64,000 bases of DNA from Sphingobacterium zeae (GTDB lineage: Bacteria; Bacteroidota; Bacteroidia; Sphingobacteriales; Sphingobacteriaceae). Of this stretch, positions 24,744-31,621 are shown one piece after another (position 1 is the stretch's first letter; every line of letters begins with the position of its first letter). Where the stretch lies: assembly GCF_030818895.1 (NCBI RefSeq), contig NZ_JAUTBA010000001.1:1736001-1800000 (forward strand). The letters are read 5' to 3'. The notes beneath the pieces were generated by a model. That model saw only the letters and a program-made list of their open reading frames with translations. It did not search any database and was not told the DNA's origin. A program made the position numbers and the translations under genes.

Positions 24744-25671
24744 GGGGCTATCTCAAAATATGAAATGGCCCCTTTTTCTGTCTATACTTATTAAGTAATT
24801 GAAATTCAATTATTTGTATAATATATCAGAAACATTTATGGTCAAACGTAATAGTTTTAAGCCCTACTACCAAGACCAGCTCATGGTAATTCCTTCAATT
24901 TTGGATGAACTGGTTTCCAGGTTGAATCCTGTACGGATTGTAAACGATGTTATCAACCGTATCAATATTCAGAGGCTCCTGGATGCCTATAAAATAAAGT
25001 GCAGTTCCAGTTATTACACAAAGATGTTGTTGAATATGCTGGTCTATGGCTATATCAGCAATGTTTGCAGCAGCCGCAAACTTGGGGTAGCCTGTCTGGA
25101 AAATATCAACTTCATGTGGCTGAGCGGGATGAGTTTTCCGGCTCATAATGCCATAAAAAGATTTCGTGGCATCCGTTTAAAGGATGTCCTTCGCAATATA
25201 TTTGAAGAAGTTGTTAAATTACTGGCTGATGCAGGATTGTTGAAGACAGTAGTTATCTAAACAGATGGCACCAAGATCGAAGCGATTGTCAACCGTTATA
25301 CTATTGTATGGAAAAAGACCATCCTGAGCGTATTCAGATCTGAGGATGAGCTTCCCCGAACCTCTGGGCCTGATAGAAATTTACAGGGCTAAGTTCAGGC
25401 CACGGTGGATAGACTGAACTGTGCTGGAAGGGAATGCCTGGGTCAACAAATAGATACGGGCGATGTTGCGTTACGCCGCCAAAATTTATCTAGACAAAAT
25501 AGCGCATTGCCATCGGGGGACTGTGCTGGTGAAGCGGAACAGTTGCAGCGGGACTGATAAGGGTGCAACGTTCATGCATATGAATTATGACCATATGAAC
25601 AATGGCCAGCTCAAGCCGAGGTACAGTGTACACATATCCACTTACAAATTTCTAATCAGTTCACTGTCAAC
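24744..25671 (+). mobile_element. IS1182-type insertion-sequence remnant with broken transposase
   Basis: GGGGCTATCTCAAAA at 24744-24758 resembles the left terminal repeat typical of IS1182 elements. The transposase begins at ATG 24838 and reads YYQDQLMVIPSILDELV, NMLVYGYISNVCSSRKLG and NINFMWLSGMSFPAHNAIKRF, all family signatures, but stops at 25260. Downstream the same reading continues in fragments: TDGTKIEAIVNRYTIVW (25264-25314) and [19 protein letters not shown] (25564-25617). Several stops and frame shifts, and loss of the catalytic C-terminus and right end, show the element is dead. Confidence 0.82.
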
Positions 25672-25756: not shown

Positions 25757-26257
25757 TCATTTATACTTCTTAACAGGTTTCGCAGAATGGTTTTTTCGGT
25801 ATTGTTTATAATTTCCATGTTTTTCATATTCCAAGGTTCCTTCCTTACAGTAACCGCTGAGATAAACTGAGAATTTATTGCTTTGGTCTTTGTTGGCATT
25901 CAGCTGTTGGATGATATCAGAAACACGACGGGGTATCTCAAAGAAGTTGGAATTATAAACAAGGTCATCCAGTTCTTTAGTCAGTTCGATACGGCGTTTT
26001 GACTCTGGGGGAATATTGTAGAGCGGCGTTAAATCAATCTCTTTTCTGAATATCTTATGTGGTTGAATTTTGAGCGCACGGCAGATCAGAATAAAGTTGT
26101 TCAAAGAAGAACCTTTTCCTTTTTCAATAGCCGAGACCGTATTGGTAGTCAATCCAGTCATATTCGCAACATCTTTCAAGGTATAGTAGATTTTTTCCCT
26201 TTGAATGCGCAATTCCTCACCAATTTCCTCCAGTATGTTCTCGTTAATATCTGCCAT
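25757..26257 (-). CDS. XRE-family transcriptional regulator
   Basis: 166 residues from ATG 26257 (an ATG at 26263 would add two). Residues about 8-65 form a Cro/CI-type helix-turn-helix: LRIQREKIYYTLKDVANMTG then LTTNTVSAIEKGKGSSLNN. The C-terminal 100 residues are unassigned. It is transcribed away from the hairpin array and sigma/Cas12f-like genes, with palindromic TTTGCGCA sites in the shared intergenic region, so it probably represses itself and the array promoters. It sits beside the IS1182 remnant. Confidence 0.88.
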   Translation of the reverse strand: MADINENILEEIGEELRIQREKIYYTLKDVANMTGLTTNTVSAIEKGKGSSLNNFILICRALKIQPHKIFRKEIDLTPLYNIPPESKRRIELTKELDDLVYNSNFFEIPRRVSDIIQQLNANKDQSNKFSVYLSGYCKEGTLEYEKHGNYKQYRKNHSAKPVKKYK

Positions 26258-26274
26258 ATACAAATGGAAGACTT

Positions 26275-26323
26275 ATTTGCGCATAATTTAAATAATAATA
26301 TTTTTTATTTTATTTGCGCAAAT
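26275..26323. promoter_or_regulatory. Paired operator-like palindromes
   Basis: ATTTGCGCAAAT at 26312-26323 is a perfect 12-bp palindrome; ATTTGCGCATAA at 26275-26286 is a near copy, 18 bases before the regulator start. A third copy, TTTGCGCAAA, is at 26642-26651. Spacing between the first two centres is 37 bases. These are the best candidates for the binding sites of the neighbouring XRE protein. Confidence 0.6.
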
Positions 26324-26344
26324 AAATATTAGTATGTATATTTG
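26314..26344 (+). promoter_or_regulatory. Promoter P1 toward the hairpin array
   Basis: TTG at 26314-26316, 20-base spacer, TATATTTG at 26337-26344: a full match to the Bacteroidota consensus. The -33 TTG is inside the palindromic operator at 26312-26323, so repressor binding would block it. Confidence 0.7.
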
Positions 26345-26641
26345 TTTCAACGAAAGCCGATAAACTAAATGTGAACTGTGAACCATACCAATAATTGTTG
26401 AGTCATAATGCAATACTAATATGGTATGATTAAAATGCAAATAATGAGAAAATTAAGTATTAAAAATATAGCAAAGTCACCGGAATAAAACTCATTACTA
26501 TTTTGTAGATTAGTATCTAGCATCCTATGTTGATAACCCCTATTATTAACGTGAACTGCCATTCAAAGCATAGGATTAAGAAAAATAAAATTATTTGAAT
26601 CGTTGAAATAGACTCGGTATTGAGTTTATTCAAAAGCTGTG

Positions 26642-26669
26642 TTTGCGCAAAAATAAAGTAATTATTTTG
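26642..26669 (+). promoter_or_regulatory. Second operator and possible promoter P2
   Basis: TTTGCGCAAA at 26642-26651 overlaps a TTG at 26643-26645; 17 bases on is TATTTTG (26663-26669), one base short of TAnnTTTG. The layout copies P1: operator over the -33 element. It lies just upstream of the hairpin region. Confidence 0.45.
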
Positions 26670-26726
26670 CGTTGAGGATGTTCTTTGACTTGTTGGTATT
26701 GAATAAGGAGAATATAAAAATTTAGG

Positions 26727-26822
26727 CTGATCGGATGTTTTGCTGATCAGTTTGATTAGAATAGGAGGCATCTTGTTATGCCGTAGGGTGAGCGCAATGG
26801 CGACTCACTAAATACCCTTTTT
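26727..26822 (+). ncRNA. Clustered hairpins ending in a T run, candidate RNA scaffold or terminator
   Basis: Three structures in a row: CTGATC / GATCAG (26727-26750), GGCAT / ATGCC (26767-26782), and a nested stem in which TGAG-CGC pairs with GCG-CTCA inside AGGG / CCCT (26785-26818), followed by five T. The last could end a transcript from P1 or P2, or be part of a guide-RNA scaffold (tracr-like) for the downstream Cas12f-like protein. No clear anti-repeat to the array was found by eye. Confidence 0.45.
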
Positions 26823-26884
26823 ATTAAAATGTTGGGTAACATCCTGCGTTATGTTCTTGATTGTTATTACGATAATAGGTGATA

Positions 26885-27372
26885 GGATGTTAATAGTCTC
26901 GAAATGTCGGTTAGTAACAATTTTTCAACGCGTAACTTTTTTCAAAGAGAGATGTTAACGATCTCAAAAAGTTAGGTATACACAACATTGCTCTATTCGA
27001 GCGTTCGTAACTTAAGATGTTGATGACCTTAAGATGTATGGTATATTCAATAACGCGAAAAAATCGCAATTGGGGAAACTATCATGTTAATGATAGCAAA
27101 AAGTAGGGTATACACAACTACACCTTGTGACCCCTCATTCAATCGCGGATGTTAACGGTCTCACAATGTAGGATCTATTCAACAACGCGATCCGGCATCC
27201 CAAATAAACTTAGATGTTAATGACATCTAAACATAAAGTATACACAAGAAAGAGCTTTTTAAAAAACAGCGTTATGAAGATACAAAAATTTAGGGGATAC
27301 ACAACTGATATATTTACCAGTAGAATGAATCGTCTAGGATAAAGATGATTTAGAATAAAGGGTATACACAGC
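26885..27372 (+). repeat. Array of about eight diverged hairpin repeats, candidate guide-RNA array
   Basis: Each unit has a core near GATGTTAA flanked by complementary arms and, about 20 bases on, a conserved tail, then 20-28 variable bases. Cores start at 26885, 26950, 27015, 27082, 27147 and 27212; two further units have hairpins near 27271 and 27329. Arms differ but still pair: GAGAT/ATCTC, CTTAAG/CTTAAG, CTATCAT/ATGATAG, TTAGATGT/ACATCTAA, ATCGTCT/AGATGAT. Tails are of two kinds: GGTATACACAAC (ending 26986, 27118, 27248, 27305, 27372, with small changes) and TATTCAACAACGCG-like (26924-26932, 27040-27057, 27171-27189). The first six units alternate between the kinds with a 130-132 base period. 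Hairpin, fixed tail, variable 3' segment is the form of type V crRNAs. Confidence 0.65.
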
Positions 27373-27430
27373 TGGACCGCGTAACGACAGTATCTCCCAT
27401 TCAATGCCAATAAGTTTTATTAACAATTTA

Positions 27431-27490
27431 CACTTACCCAGCTTCGGTTTCCATAAAATCCGTCAAATTCCGCCGGAGTTGCGGTAAGTG
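27431..27490 (+). promoter_or_regulatory. Closed stem upstream of the sigma gene
   Basis: CACTTACC (27431-27438) pairs perfectly with GGTAAGTG (27483-27490), enclosing about 44 bases that contain TCCG and CGGA. It lies 30 bases before the sigma ATG and could be a leader structure or the last part of a guide RNA. Confidence 0.45.
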
Positions 27491-27520
27491 ATTTTCGCTT
27501 TAACCAAGAAAGGACGAATT

Positions 27521-28330
27521 ATGAAACTACTTTTACGAAAACAAGAGACCATACGCGCATTAGAAAACCTCCGCCAAGGTGAAGAAAGGGGGCTTAAATT
27601 CTTCTACCAAAAATTCTATAAACATTTCCTTTTTCGTGCACACCGCGCAACAGATGACGAATGTACAGGCGAAAGTATTGCCCAAGAGGCCTTTCTACGC
27701 CTTTGGCTGTTCCGAGAAAATGTACATTCCGAAACTGAAATCTTCGACTTTCTGAAAGTTCAGGTGAAAACCGCGGTTCAGGCTTTTTACAAAAAATCAA
27801 AAAACAAATTTCAGCGAAGCTTACTGCGGCTCGATAGCATAGAGGATTATCAGGAGTTTATGCTGGGCTATGAACTGGAAGAGGAAAACGAAGACGATGT
27901 GCTCTATATCGAACAACTGGAATTGGAAAAGAAAAAGAGAATGGATCAGCTTAATGCTATTCTTCCAAACCTCAACCGCGATCAACAACTCTTTATTCGT
28001 CTCTGCCTCAAATATAGTTTTAACTATGAACGTATCGCGTACTATATGGGAAACATATCAGATTATGAGGTTAGTCTACAAATTGAAAATGCAATCGAAT
28101 ACCTACGTGCCATCGTCCATAGTGAAGAGAAAATGCAGCTTGTAGCCAAGCCGGTCGAATTTAAGTTAAATGGTGAAATGACCGAAGAGGAAGCTGAAGT
28201 ATTTCGCATGCGCTACGAATTGCAATATTCCTTCGACAAAATTTCGGAAGCATTGCAGCTGGATGGGGGACAGGTAAGGACGTTGTTTATTAATGCGCAC
28301 GCAAAAATTAAATCAAAAAAAATAGCATAA
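27521..28330 (+). CDS. Sigma-70 family (ECF-like) factor with two sigma-4-like regions, partner of the Cas12f-like protein
   Basis: 269 residues from ATG 27521, preceded by AAAGGA 10 bases upstream; the GTG at 27488 lies in a stem and is less likely. Residues about 18-92 form sigma region 2 (FYQKFYKHFLFRAHRATDDE, then ESIAQEAFLRLWLFRENV, the -10-binding/RNAP-core helices). Residues about 142-200 look like region 4 (LPNLNRDQQLFIRLCLKYS then YERIAYYMGNISDYEV), and residues about 218-266 look like a second region-4 module (MTEEEAEVFRMRYELQYSFD, then KISEALQLDGGQVRTLF). An acidic linker (EDYQEFMLGYELEEENEDD) separates regions 2 and 4. Ordinary ECF factors have one region 4 and are about 190 residues. 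No anti-sigma gene is adjacent; instead the Cas12f-like gene follows 16 bases later, implying one operon and a joint function. Confidence 0.8.
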   Translation: MKLLLRKQETIRALENLRQGEERGLKFFYQKFYKHFLFRAHRATDDECTGESIAQEAFLRLWLFRENVHSETEIFDFLKVQVKTAVQAFYKKSKNKFQRSLLRLDSIEDYQEFMLGYELEEENEDDVLYIEQLELEKKKRMDQLNAILPNLNRDQQLFIRLCLKYSFNYERIAYYMGNISDYEVSLQIENAIEYLRAIVHSEEKMQLVAKPVEFKLNGEMTEEEAEVFRMRYELQYSFDKISEALQLDGGQVRTLFINAHAKIKSKKIA

Positions 28331-28346
28331 AAAAAATAAAAGCAAT

Positions 28347-29441
28347 ATGGCAGCTGATACAATGGTGTTGACCCGGAAAATACAGGTGTTCGTGGATTGT
28401 GACGATAAAGAAAAACGGTCGGAATATTTTAAAAAACTCTTTGAATGGCAGGATCTCGTATTCCGTGCCGCTAATATGGTCATCACCCACCAATATGTGC
28501 AGGAAAATCTGAAAGACCTGATTTATTTGCAAGATGATGTTAAAATTAAACTGGCCGATAAGGCAAAGAATCCCGAAGGTGTATTGAATACTTCACGCAT
28601 GAACACTACTTACCGCGTGCTATCTAATTATTTTAAGGGACGAATTCCTACGGATATTCTATCACAAATAAACACGGCTTTAATCAAATATTTTCAGGCA
28701 GATCGTCTCTCCTATTGGAAGGGTGAAAAATCACTTCGCAATTACAAAAAGGATATGCCCATTCCCTTTCCTGGAAGACGAATTAACTTGAGTAAAGATG
28801 AGAATGCTAGAGATTTTAAATTCACATTATTCAAAATACCGTTTCGCACCTACCTCGGTAAAGACCGGTCGGATAAACGAGTGCTGCTACAACGTGCATT
28901 GGTCGGACAAATCAAAGTCTGTAGTAGCGCAATCAAAATCGTCAAAGGTAAAATCTTTCTGCTGTTGGCCCTCGAGCTCCCAAAGAAAATCCAAGAATTG
29001 AAAGATAACATTATCGCCGAAGCGTCGCTTTCAATCGAACATCCCATAGCAGTCACCATCGGAAAGGAGTCCTTTCAGATCGGTAATAAAGAAGAGTTTA
29101 CTTACCGACGTATGGCCATCCAAGCCGCACGGCATCGCTTGCAAAAAGCTGCAGCATTTGATAAAGGTGGGCGTGGTCGTAAGCGAAAAATGAAAAGCTT
29201 GGAGCACTTCAACGAAAAGGAGAAAAATTATGTAGACACCAAGCTCCACCTCTATAGCCGCCGATTAATTGAACTTTGTGTGAAAGCACAGGCAGGCACC
29301 CTCTTGTTGGTCAACCAATCCAATAAGGAGGAAATTGCCAAAGGCGATAAATTCTTACTGCGAAACTGGAGCTACTACGGTCTTATCGAAAAAATTAAAT
29401 ACAAAGCTAAAATGGTCGGGATCAACGTTATCATCGAATAG
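28347..29441 (+). CDS. Nuclease-dead Cas12f/TnpB-like RNA-guided DNA-binding protein
   Basis: 364 residues. N-terminal part (FEWQDLVFRAANMVITHQY, KGEKSLRNYKKDMPIPF, SSAIKIVKGKIFLLLALELP) matches the recognition and wedge regions of miniature type V effectors. The RuvC fold follows: RuvC-I position is IAVTIGKES (about 234-242) where the catalytic Asp is replaced by Thr; the RuvC-II position is GTLLLVNQSN (about 317-326) with no acidic residue; the bridge motif NWSYYGLIEKIKYKAKMVGI (340-359) is intact, but the protein ends five residues later, without the CxxC zinc ribbon and RuvC-III Asp. It should therefore bind guide RNA and DNA but not cut. Its operon partner is a sigma factor. Nuclease-dead Cas12f proteins tied to sigma factors have been reported in Bacteroidota as RNA-guided transcription activators; this assignment follows from that. 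A TldR-like repressor derived from TnpB is the alternative. Confidence 0.82.
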   Translation: MAADTMVLTRKIQVFVDCDDKEKRSEYFKKLFEWQDLVFRAANMVITHQYVQENLKDLIYLQDDVKIKLADKAKNPEGVLNTSRMNTTYRVLSNYFKGRIPTDILSQINTALIKYFQADRLSYWKGEKSLRNYKKDMPIPFPGRRINLSKDENARDFKFTLFKIPFRTYLGKDRSDKRVLLQRALVGQIKVCSSAIKIVKGKIFLLLALELPKKIQELKDNIIAEASLSIEHPIAVTIGKESFQIGNKEEFTYRRMAIQAARHRLQKAAAFDKGGRGRKRKMKSLEHFNEKEKNYVDTKLHLYSRRLIELCVKAQAGTLLLVNQSNKEEIAKGDKFLLRNWSYYGLIEKIKYKAKMVGINVIIE

Positions 29442-29442
29442 A

Positions 29443-30330
29443 TCAATCCAATTTTTTCCCTTTATAAAACTTGCTCCATGCATCCCCGGCATAGCCGTTA
29501 TCCAAATATTCAAAGGTGGAAGCACTCGCCCCCTTCAGCTCCTGGCCGCGATAGAAAACCGTCCAGGAGTCTTTCGCATACCCTCCTCTAAGTGCTGTAA
29601 AGGTAGATGCCGAAGCGCCGTTAACTTTTATTCCCTGATAGTAAACTGCCCAGGCGTCTTTGGCATAGCCATCACCCAAATATTCAAACGTTGAAGCAGA
29701 AGCCCCTTCCACTTTCTGATTTTTATAAAAAACAGACCAACTGTCCTTGGCGTATTGACCGCCGAGAGGCTGTGTGGTAGCTCCAGCAAATCTATCGTTC
29801 TTTTCGCCCCTATAATAGCTGTTCCAATTATCTTTCGCATACCCCCGACCGAGATTTTCAAAGCTCGAAGCGTTTGCCCCATTAATTTCCTTGCCTAAAT
29901 AGTAGACTTTCCACGCGTCTTTGCTGTAACCATTTCCCAGTGTCTGGAAAGTAGAAGTTGTTACGTTTGACAATGGCTTGCCATAAAAATAAACTTTCCA
30001 GGCATCGCTAGCATAACCGTCTCCAAGAAATTGGAAAGTAGATGGGCTGGCATCAGTTAGTATTGACCCTCGAAAATATACTTTCCAGGTATCCTTGGCG
30101 TAACCCGAACCTAAAAATTGAAACGAACTGGCGTTGGCGCTTGGAATTTCTTTGCCACGATAATAGATACGTGATCCGATTTTGCTGTAACCATCACCCC
30201 GATGTTCCTGAAAGAAAAAAGTAGCAGGATTGGCATGCACTACTTTAGCACAAATAGCCTGTGTGGCAGTAGTCAACAAAAGAAGAACGAGCATGGTTTT
30301 AAATGGGACTTTTGACATCATATAGGGCAT
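29443..30330 (-). CDS. Secreted DKNYY-repeat protein
   Basis: 295 residues; signal peptide TMLVLLLLTTATQAICA, then about nine tandem repeats of roughly 29 residues with the pattern GYAKDxWxVYYxGxxxxGASASTFxxL, the DKNYY family. Ends with a short tail. Starts at ATG 30330, with in-frame ATGs at 30321 and 30318 also usable. DKNYY proteins are exported and of unknown function, often in cell-surface contexts. It converges with the Cas12f-like gene with a single base between stop codons, so read-through antisense transcription between them is possible. Confidence 0.82.
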   Translation of the reverse strand: MPYMMSKVPFKTMLVLLLLTTATQAICAKVVHANPATFFFQEHRGDGYSKIGSRIYYRGKEIPSANASSFQFLGSGYAKDTWKVYFRGSILTDASPSTFQFLGDGYASDAWKVYFYGKPLSNVTTSTFQTLGNGYSKDAWKVYYLGKEINGANASSFENLGRGYAKDNWNSYYRGEKNDRFAGATTQPLGGQYAKDSWSVFYKNQKVEGASASTFEYLGDGYAKDAWAVYYQGIKVNGASASTFTALRGGYAKDSWTVFYRGQELKGASASTFEYLDNGYAGDAWSKFYKGKKLD

Positions 30331-31253: not shown

Positions 31254-31621
31254 ACAATTTAAAAATTTAAAGGATTAAACCATAAACTGTATCCAGATCT
31301 TATTGGGAAAATAATCGTTTTGCGACGTTTATTTTGGTCGAAACCCGTATTAATTTACCACCGCGGTGCCTCCACTCGGTTGGTATTGCATCATGCAATT
31401 CTGAATACTCTACAAATATAGTAGATTATTTTTTATAATAAAATTTTTTTTGTTTTTAGGGGTAAATGACCTTTAGCAACAGAAATAGGAAGGTCAAAGC
31501 GAGGCGCGGTGTTGACTGTGATTTGGTTATAAAGCGGTTAGCTGGATGGGAAATTTATCATGTTACTGTAATCTCATCGAAAATACTTTAAAAAGCAGAG
31601 ATAACACAATACTTTTGCGCC
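31254..31621. promoter_or_regulatory. Intergenic region with a promoter next to the DUF3050 start
   Basis: 368 bases without a gene. TACTTTTG at 31610-31617 matches TAnnTTTG, with TTA (one mismatch to TTG) 19 bases upstream; its end is 4 bases before the DUF3050 ATG. A 10-bp palindrome CACCGCGGTG is at 31359-31368 and TGCATCATGCA near 31388; their role is unknown. Confidence 0.5.

What the first reader, a model, noticed from the sequence alone, without database searches (positions are those of the whole stretch)
26314..29441. Nuclease-dead Cas12f-like protein plus sigma factor plus hairpin array: candidate RNA-guided transcription system
Seen: a sigma-70 family gene followed 16 bases later by a Cas12f/TnpB-like gene without RuvC catalytic residues, preceded by about 500 bases of hairpin repeats and a regulated promoter region. 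Known: dead Cas12f proteins linked to sigma factors in Bacteroidota have been reported to activate transcription with a guide RNA. Inference: guides from the upstream array direct the dead Cas12f-sigma pair to promoters elsewhere in the genome. The XRE control and multi-unit array may make this a distinct subtype.
Basis: partly seen in the sequence, partly recalled or inferred. Interest (0 to 1): 0.95.

Follow-up and report, generated by a model that had tools for sequence, protein, structure and literature searches.

The report
CRISPR guide array that activates genes
Beside genes for a Cas12f-like protein that lacks its cutting residues and for a sigma factor, this Sphingobacterium-type genome carries a worn CRISPR-like array; guides from it and from its relatives' arrays match DNA at the heads of predicted nutrient-uptake operons, almost only on the operon's own strand, so the array likely tells the protein pair which operons to switch on.

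Summary
The 364-aa protein is a full-length homologue (51% identity) of the solved nuclease-dead Cas12f (PDB 9n9m/9n9c); the sigma factor matches RpoE of the same series (9n9q). Upstream lie a tracrRNA-like element (26765-26822) and a worn CRISPR-type array of seven scored units (from 26886). In relatives the array is regular: 36-nt repeats, 30-nt spacers.

Of 163 spacers from 11 arrays, 44 match a head region of one family of small-ORF/TlpA/SusC operons at 22/28 or better on the sense strand, 1 on the antisense. Similarity stops at the spacer ends; sites follow 5'-TTYR-like bases; none of 110 sites lies past the first ORF. In self-searches of six whole genomes, 10 of 12 spacer hits with E<0.05 lie sense at the head of, or up to 3.4 kb before, such operons.

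In this genome the array is mostly outdated: two of seven scored guides (U6 clearly, U3 moderately) have a target.

Most likely this is an array-programmed variant of the known dCas12f-sigma RNA-guided transcription system. Guide RNA, binding and activation are untested here, and the founding papers could not be read.

The parts
25757..26263 (-). Divergent XRE-type regulator gene (168-aa ORF, TTG start)
   Evidence: Pfam HTH_3 E 5.6e-8; also present upstream of the arrays of relatives read
26276..26651 (.). Three TTTGCGCA boxes (26276, 26313, 26642), candidate XRE operators
   Evidence: operator role inferred
26444..26488 (+). 14-codon ORF MRKLSIKNIAKSPE, similar short ORFs in L005 and L011
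   Evidence: role unknown
26765..26822 (+). tracrRNA-like element: two hairpins, anti-repeat AAATACCC (26810-26817), T run
   Evidence: 70 copies in 28 of 30 loci, covarying stem, anti-repeat changes with the repeat between clades
26886..27335 (+). Worn CRISPR-type array, seven scored repeats at 26886, 26951, 27016, 27083, 27148, 27213, 27270 (36 nt each), each followed by a guide of about 21-31 nt (U1-U7)
27052..27082 (+). Guide U3; 25/31 match to G000:5090061-5090091(-), 84 nt before the small ORF of a TlpA/SusC operon, flank TTTTG
   Evidence: E 2.7 alone; 23 of 2000 shuffles as good against the six own operons
27249..27269 (+). Guide U6; with the preceding G 20/20 to G000:4480008-4480027(-), at the start codon of the small ORF of another TlpA/SusC operon
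   Evidence: E 0.017; 0 of 2000 shuffles
27337..27402 (+). Possible eighth, very worn unit (U8)
   Evidence: seen by eye; not found by the profile
27431..27490 (+). Conserved hairpin between array and sigma gene
   Evidence: alignment and fold (z -1.75 for the 201-nt stretch); role unknown
27521..28330 (+). ECF-type sigma factor gene
   Evidence: 9n9q chain C 'RpoE' E 1.3e-39; sigma-70 models below cut-off
28347..29441 (+). Nuclease-dead Cas12f gene (364 aa)

Best explanation
This is a dCas12f-sigma locus with a CRISPR-type multi-guide array whose guide RNAs, paired with a tracrRNA-like RNA, likely steer dCas12f and its sigma factor to the heads of predicted SusC/SusD nutrient-uptake operons, where the sigma factor would start transcription of the operon. 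Shown by sequence: the protein homologies, the loss of RuvC residues, the array, a tracrRNA-like element whose anti-repeat changes with the repeat, and guide-site matches that stop at the spacer ends, lie almost only on the operon's sense strand and are absent past the first ORF. Inferred: transcription and processing of the array, complex formation, binding at the matched sites, and activation of the TlpA/SusC/SusD genes. In this particular genome the array is worn, and only two of its seven scored guides (U6 clearly, U3 moderately) still have a recognisable target.
For: Proteins. Array. tracrRNA-like element with covariation. Window targets. 163 spacers against 46 operon loci: >=22/28 sense 136, antisense 1, control DNA 1+1; without the three loci that seeded the search 129 against 1; 44 of 163 spacers sense, 1 antisense. 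Similarity bounded by the 30-nt spacer; 5'-TTYR-like flank; 0 of 110 sites past the first ORF. Self-searches of whole genomes: 10 of 12 spacer hits with E<0.05 sense at or before such operons (with contexts in 38, 52, 57, 67, 96), including one in a second clade.
Against: No RNA, binding or expression data. Self hits are no more frequent than cross-species hits (12 of 673 against 124 of 6825 spacer-locus pairs). 98 of 163 spacers have no sense hit >=21/28. Five of seven window guides have no own target. Two of the 12 self hits do not fit cleanly: SusC 5.7 kb downstream (G002) and a HigB-like gene with no such operon within 10 kb (G010). Some sites lie 1-3.3 kb upstream or inside the first ORF. 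SusC/SusD names rest on reading of the ORFs except the proteins scanned.
Confidence: 0.8

Rival explanations
1. The arrays work in relatives, but the locus in this window is a relic: the proteins persist while the array has decayed and hardly controls its own operons.
For: Five of seven scored guides without an own target; repeats more degenerate than in most relatives; U2 and U4 match operon heads of relatives instead (23 and 26 of 28).
Against: Both ORFs, the tracrRNA-like element and guides U6 and U3 are intact; U5 and U6 are shared with L005.
Confidence: 0.25
2. The complex is a repressor: dCas12f blocks transcription at the operon leaders, as an RNA-guided roadblock like TldR.
For: Sites lie mostly from -500 to +370 around the first ORF, where a block would also work; no expression data.
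Against: A sigma gene is adjacent and homologous to the one solved together with dCas12f; sites occur up to 3.3 kb upstream, always with the operon downstream in sense, and none past the first ORF.
Confidence: 0.1
3. The array is a memory against incoming DNA that carries such operons, not a regulator of the host's own.
For: Guides match relatives' operons as often as own ones; Cas1 present in 2 of 6 genomes; many species-specific spacers (89 of 163 unshared).
Against: Own operons are matched without avoidance, up to 31/31; no nuclease; one-strand, head-only targeting is not expected of immunity.
Confidence: 0.06
4. The matches are chance or reflect shared ancestry of array and operon leaders.
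For: The regions are A+T rich and U6 is low in complexity.
Against: Similarity ends at both spacer ends; shuffled or reversed spacers, the antisense strand and other real DNA do not show it.
Confidence: 0.02

Closest known systems
dCas12f-sigmaE RNA-guided transcription system (PDB 9n9c, 9n9m, 9n9o, 9n9q; the 2025 reports by Hoffmann et al. and Xiao et al. on Flagellimonas taeanensis are recalled, not read)
   Same: Full-length homologous dCas12f (51% identity) next to a homologous sigma factor; no RuvC residues.
   Different: A CRISPR-type array with 36-nt repeats and one to six tracrRNA-like elements per locus; TTYR-like flank instead of a minimal 5'-G (recalled); a SusCD operon family as targets. 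Whether the original reports describe arrays or such targets I could not check.
Type V-F CRISPR-Cas12f
   Same: Cas12f fold, 36-nt repeats ending in CAAC, tracrRNA-like partner with anti-repeat, T-rich 5' flank with purine at -1 (Cas12f PAM TTTR recalled).
   Different: No nuclease residues, sigma gene beside it, no Cas1 in the window's genome, spacers match chromosomal operon heads.
TldR (TnpB-like nuclease-dead repressors; abstract and passages of PMC13418256 seen)
   Same: Nuclease-dead, RNA-guided transcription control by a TnpB/Cas12 relative.
   Different: TldR represses flagellin genes; here a sigma partner and a multi-guide array.

Membership tests
dCas12f-sigmaE RNA-guided transcription | Full-length homologue of dCas12f | tested here: met
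   9n9c E 2.5e-122 over residues 3-363; Foldseek best hits 9n9m, 9n9c
dCas12f-sigmaE RNA-guided transcription | RuvC catalytic residues lost | tested here: met
   alignment to 9nzo: D to S227, RuvC-II segment gapped, C-terminus short (positions recalled)
dCas12f-sigmaE RNA-guided transcription | Adjacent homologous sigma factor | tested here: met
   16-base gap; 9n9q_C RpoE E 1.3e-39
dCas12f-sigmaE RNA-guided transcription | Guide RNA encoded nearby that matches chromosomal targets | tested here: met
   (by sequence; RNA itself not tested)
dCas12f-sigmaE RNA-guided transcription | 5'-G target-adjacent motif (recalled) | tested here: inconclusive
   -1 base A 17, G 9, T 6, C 1 in 33 clusters; TTYR-like overall
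dCas12f-sigmaE RNA-guided transcription | Guide-dependent transcription from a set distance | not testable with these tools
   needs expression and start-site data
Type V-F CRISPR-Cas12f | Regular repeat-spacer array | tested here: met
   regular in relatives (163 and 67 repeats); worn in the window (7 units)
Type V-F CRISPR-Cas12f | tracrRNA with anti-repeat | tested here: met
   28 of 30 loci; native A and B duplexes stronger than swapped; RNA not shown
Type V-F CRISPR-Cas12f | Active RuvC nuclease | tested here: not met
   alignment
Type V-F CRISPR-Cas12f | Adaptation gene cas1 in the genome | tested here: not met
   none in G000; 2 of 6 genomes have one
TldR | Nuclease-dead TnpB acting without a sigma partner as repressor (recalled) | tested here: not met
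   a homologous sigma gene is adjacent; repression itself not testable

The most novel reading that the evidence does not exclude
A natural, rewritable CRISPR-activation memory: Sphingobacterium arrays gain and lose 30-nt guides copied, next to a TTYR motif, from the heads of SusCD nutrient operons; only sense-oriented guides are kept, so each lineage inherits a record of which operons its dCas12f-sigma pair should transcribe.
Probability: 0.3. Interest if true: 0.95.

Novelty: new variant of a known kind. Interest (0 to 1): 0.86.

Why it matters
If true, a CRISPR array has been turned from immunity into a multi-gene activation programme: one RNA-guided complex with exchangeable guides would choose among families of outer-membrane nutrient receptors. 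It would give RNA-guided transcription a natural regulon, a predicted target flank, and an evolutionary signature (sense strand only, tolerant of position, never in the operon body). It would also offer a testable answer to how these bacteria control several similar SusCD operons, and a natural template for multiplex gene activation.

Tried and rejected
Rfam: one match in the window, a SAM-I/IV riboswitch at 31320-31413; nothing at the array or tracrRNA-like element.

Polarity of arrays (older spacers at the sigma end): no overall trend (p 0.27), although 17 of 22 spacers in the last two places are shared.

Window guides against the own genome: U1, U2, U4, U5, U7 not above chance. U2 and U4 match operon heads of relatives (23 and 26 of 28); U1, U5, U7 only weakly (20-21). 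In one search I took U7 and U8 a base or two off; searches use profile-defined spacers, without U8.

The other hits (L036-L040, L042-L050) fall in repeats, off the spacer start, or are weak; read as chance. In some searches, hits on array or tracrRNA copies (G002:C165, G003:C1 and C4, G011:C21 and C19) and a repeated element between tracrRNA and array (G011:C1:336530) were set aside. Cross-species hits were not counted as self hits; one of them (G003:C17:204758, E 1.6e-4) lies inside a coding sequence.

L010 does not follow the anti-repeat trend: its tracrRNA pairs no better with its own repeat (-8.10) than with that of group A (-8.43).

The small ORF has no Pfam match and no PDB fold match (best E 2.0). 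Genomes of other clades mostly lack it (found in 3 of 9), so the count covers group A only: the three loci and the 67 group B spacers were not used. Of 47 small-ORF matches 46 were used; a broken copy (L122) was left out; some of the 46 are partial or start without ATG.

Papers: searches showed no title on dCas12f-sigma; listings were partly capped (20 of 96, 12 of 19, 10 of 111). I saw listings and starts of abstracts, and passages of PMC13418256, PMC12908284 and PMC12803034.
Full report
WHAT IS THERE. The window is bases 1736001-1800000 of a one-contig 5.6-Mb genome. Its dCas12f is 94-96% identical to those of S. puteale, S. athyrii, S. prati and several Sphingobacterium MAGs. The locus reads: divergent XRE gene (25757-26263, -), about 500 bases with three TTTGCGCA boxes and a 14-codon ORF, tracrRNA-like element (26765-26822), worn array (from 26886; seven scored units, perhaps an eighth), conserved hairpin (27431-27490), sigma gene (27521-28330), 16 bases, dCas12f gene (28347-29441).

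THE PROTEINS. The 364-aa protein matches 'Nuclease-deactivated Cas12f' (9n9c and three further entries) over its full length (E 2.5e-122). Its AlphaFold2 model (pLDDT 80.9, pTM 0.57) matches 9n9m (51% identity) and 9n9c best, then Cas12f structures. Against the Cas12f 9nzo the RuvC-I aspartate faces S227, the RuvC-II segment is a gap, and the match ends before the Cas12f's last 90 residues (catalytic positions recalled). The sigma factor matches RpoE of 9n9q (E 1.3e-39). By homology the pair belongs to the known dCas12f-sigma system. The founding papers are not held, so their content is recalled: guide-directed recruitment of RNA polymerase, 5'-G flank, start sites set by distance from the R-loop.

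THE ARRAY IS CRISPR-TYPE. In four relatives read in full (L003, L005, L006, L011) the same place holds arrays with 36-nt repeats (for example GTTGTTACTCATCACAATTTGAAAGGTATACACAAC in L011), 30-nt spacers and a period of mostly 65-66. Iterated profiles found 163 repeats in 11 loci of the window's clade (group A) and 67 in 4 loci of a second clade (group B), with no hits in shuffled sequence. Further clades have irregular or few repeats. A tracrRNA-like element occurs in 28 of 30 loci, 70 copies, one to six per locus (the one in Pedobacter L027 is weak, E 0.061). Its second stem covaries. Its 3' anti-repeat differs between groups along with the repeat: AAAUACCC against GGGUAU in group A, AAAUACUUUU against AAAGGUAU in group B; mean duplex energies are -9.55 and -7.84 for native, -6.70 and -4.53 for swapped combinations; L010 does not show the trend. 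In a sample of 395 genomes of the phylum, 7 besides the window's had dCas12f at E<=1e-40. Each has an ORF just upstream that reads as the sigma gene; none gave a hit for this tracrRNA-like element (nhmmer E<=1), and a simple check for recurring 10-mers showed no such array (G099 has four copies of another repeat). In this sample the array-bearing form is thus seen only in part of Sphingobacterium.

TARGETS IN THE WINDOW'S GENOME. The whole-genome search with the window array gave one spacer hit below E 0.05: U6, 20/20 including the preceding G, at the start codon of a 127-aa ORF. A second, U3, 25/31 but E 2.7 by itself, lies 84 nt upstream of a homologous ORF. Both ORFs head operons with a TlpA-like gene and a TonB receptor (Redoxin/AhpC-TSA and Plug domains in the two proteins scanned). 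Four more operons of this kind exist in the genome; all six have a divergent ORF 0.6-1.6 kb upstream, most reading as a helix-turn-helix regulator (not scanned). Against shuffles U6 stands out (0 of 2000), U3 moderately (23 of 2000), the other five scored guides not.

TARGETS ACROSS RELATIVES. With the small-ORF alignment A1 (three sequences) I collected 46 operon loci in 10 genomes and compared the 163 group A spacers. At >=20/28 there were 326 hits (284 sense, 42 antisense) against 62 for reversed and 55 for shuffled spacers. At >=22/28: 136 sense, 1 antisense, 1+1 in 59 kb of control DNA. Three loci had seeded A1 because guides hit them; without them 129 against 1. Per spacer, 65 of 163 have a sense hit >=21/28, 3 an antisense hit, 3.5 per strand for shuffles; at >=22, 44, 1 and 0.5. 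In 33 independent spacer clusters the match is about 0.88 at guide positions 1-28, 0.76 at 29, 0.58 at 30 and near background outside, repeat included. The 5' flank is TTYR-like: -2 pyrimidine 29/33 (p 5e-6), -1 purine 26/33 (p 1.3e-3), -4 T 21/33 (p 8e-5), G at -2..-4 in 2 of 99 (p 5e-7). Sites per kb: 3.74 at -250..0, 2.35 at -500..-250, 1.53 in the small ORF, 0.28-0.37 further upstream, 0 in 64.6 kb from +370 on. In 43 of 46 loci an FSLSAQ-type leader is encoded downstream of the small-ORF start.

SELF SEARCHES OF WHOLE GENOMES. Arrays were searched against their own genomes, array and tracrRNA copies and one repeated element set aside. Spacer hits with E<0.05: G000 1, G002 3, G001 2, G010 4, G003 1, G011 1; 12 in all. 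Ten lie in sense orientation at the start of, inside the first ORF of, or 0.1-3.4 kb upstream of an operon with SusC-like and SusD-like genes (as read from ORFs). The other two: a 31/31 match in G002 with SusC/SusD-like genes 5.7 kb downstream in sense, and a 30/30 match in G010 inside a HigB-like gene with no such operon within 10 kb. A near-identical HigB-like gene lies upstream of such an operon in G003, and this spacer matches there 26/28. G011 belongs to the second clade and has no small ORF, so the target class is the TlpA/SusC operon rather than the small ORF. G002 is an 8.4-Mb MAG and may be mixed.

INTERPRETATION. Strand bias with tolerance for position, and exclusion from the operon body, is what guide-set, promoter-independent transcription predicts; a roadblock or immunity does not predict it. 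My best reading is that the array programmes dCas12f-sigma to transcribe SusCD operons. Against full confidence: no RNA or binding data; self and cross hit rates equal (12 of 673 and 124 of 6825 spacer-locus pairs); 98 of 163 spacers unmatched; and a mostly outdated array in this genome.

HOW GUIDES CHANGE. 74 of 163 spacers are shared with another species' array and 89 are not, without polarity. Cas1 was found in 2 of 6 genomes (G010, S. detergens; G012, S. olei) and not in the window's. Exact 30- and 31-nt self matches (G002, G010, G011) suggest fairly recent guides. How guides are gained is open; the rewritable-memory reading is therefore kept as the novel case only.

NOVELTY. The protein pair is known. 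The array-plus-tracrRNA form with a SusCD regulon is, as far as I could check, a new variant; searches showed no paper on it, but the founding preprints are not in the library, so it may already be described there.

Noticed in passing
G000:C1:5307843-5308055 (L002:1501-1713): A second, partial dCas12f sequence (residues 295-364, 79% identical) in the same genome, probably a remnant.
   Followed up: partly
window 26444-26488: A 14-codon ORF (MRKLSIKNIAKSPE) with similar short ORFs at the same place in L005 and L011; it may be a leader peptide.
   Followed up: no
window 27431-27490: Conserved long hairpin between array and sigma start, preceded by a conserved CAATACCAAT motif; compensatory changes visible in the alignment.
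   Followed up: partly
L080, L081, L133-L136, L176, L178: SusC or TlpA proteins of the target operons share a conserved FSLSAQTPRKDSGADG-type stretch after variable N-termini; its strict conservation is unexplained.
   Followed up: partly
L084 and homologues (alignment A3): Small ORF family (about 124 aa) heading the target operons: predicted all-helical, no Pfam and no PDB fold match.
   Followed up: partly
window 31320-31413 (-): SAM-I/IV riboswitch (48.8 bits).
   Followed up: no
window 24799-25260 (+): ORF with a DUF772 transposase domain, perhaps an insertion-sequence remnant upstream of the XRE gene.
   Followed up: no
window 29443-30330 (-): DKNYY-repeat protein directly after dCas12f on the other strand.
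   Followed up: no
L026, about 3050 to 1180 nt upstream of dCas12f: Six tracrRNA-like copies, most followed by one or two repeats: looks like separate tracrRNA-repeat-guide modules rather than one array.
   Followed up: partly
G010:C1:2315235-2315936: A cas1 gene lies about 4 kb from an exact-match target site (2311178) in S. detergens.
   Followed up: no
L021 (JAQSXG010000218.1): A record labelled Neobacillus carries a Sphingobacterium-like dCas12f locus on a 7.4-kb contig: probably a binning error.
   Followed up: no
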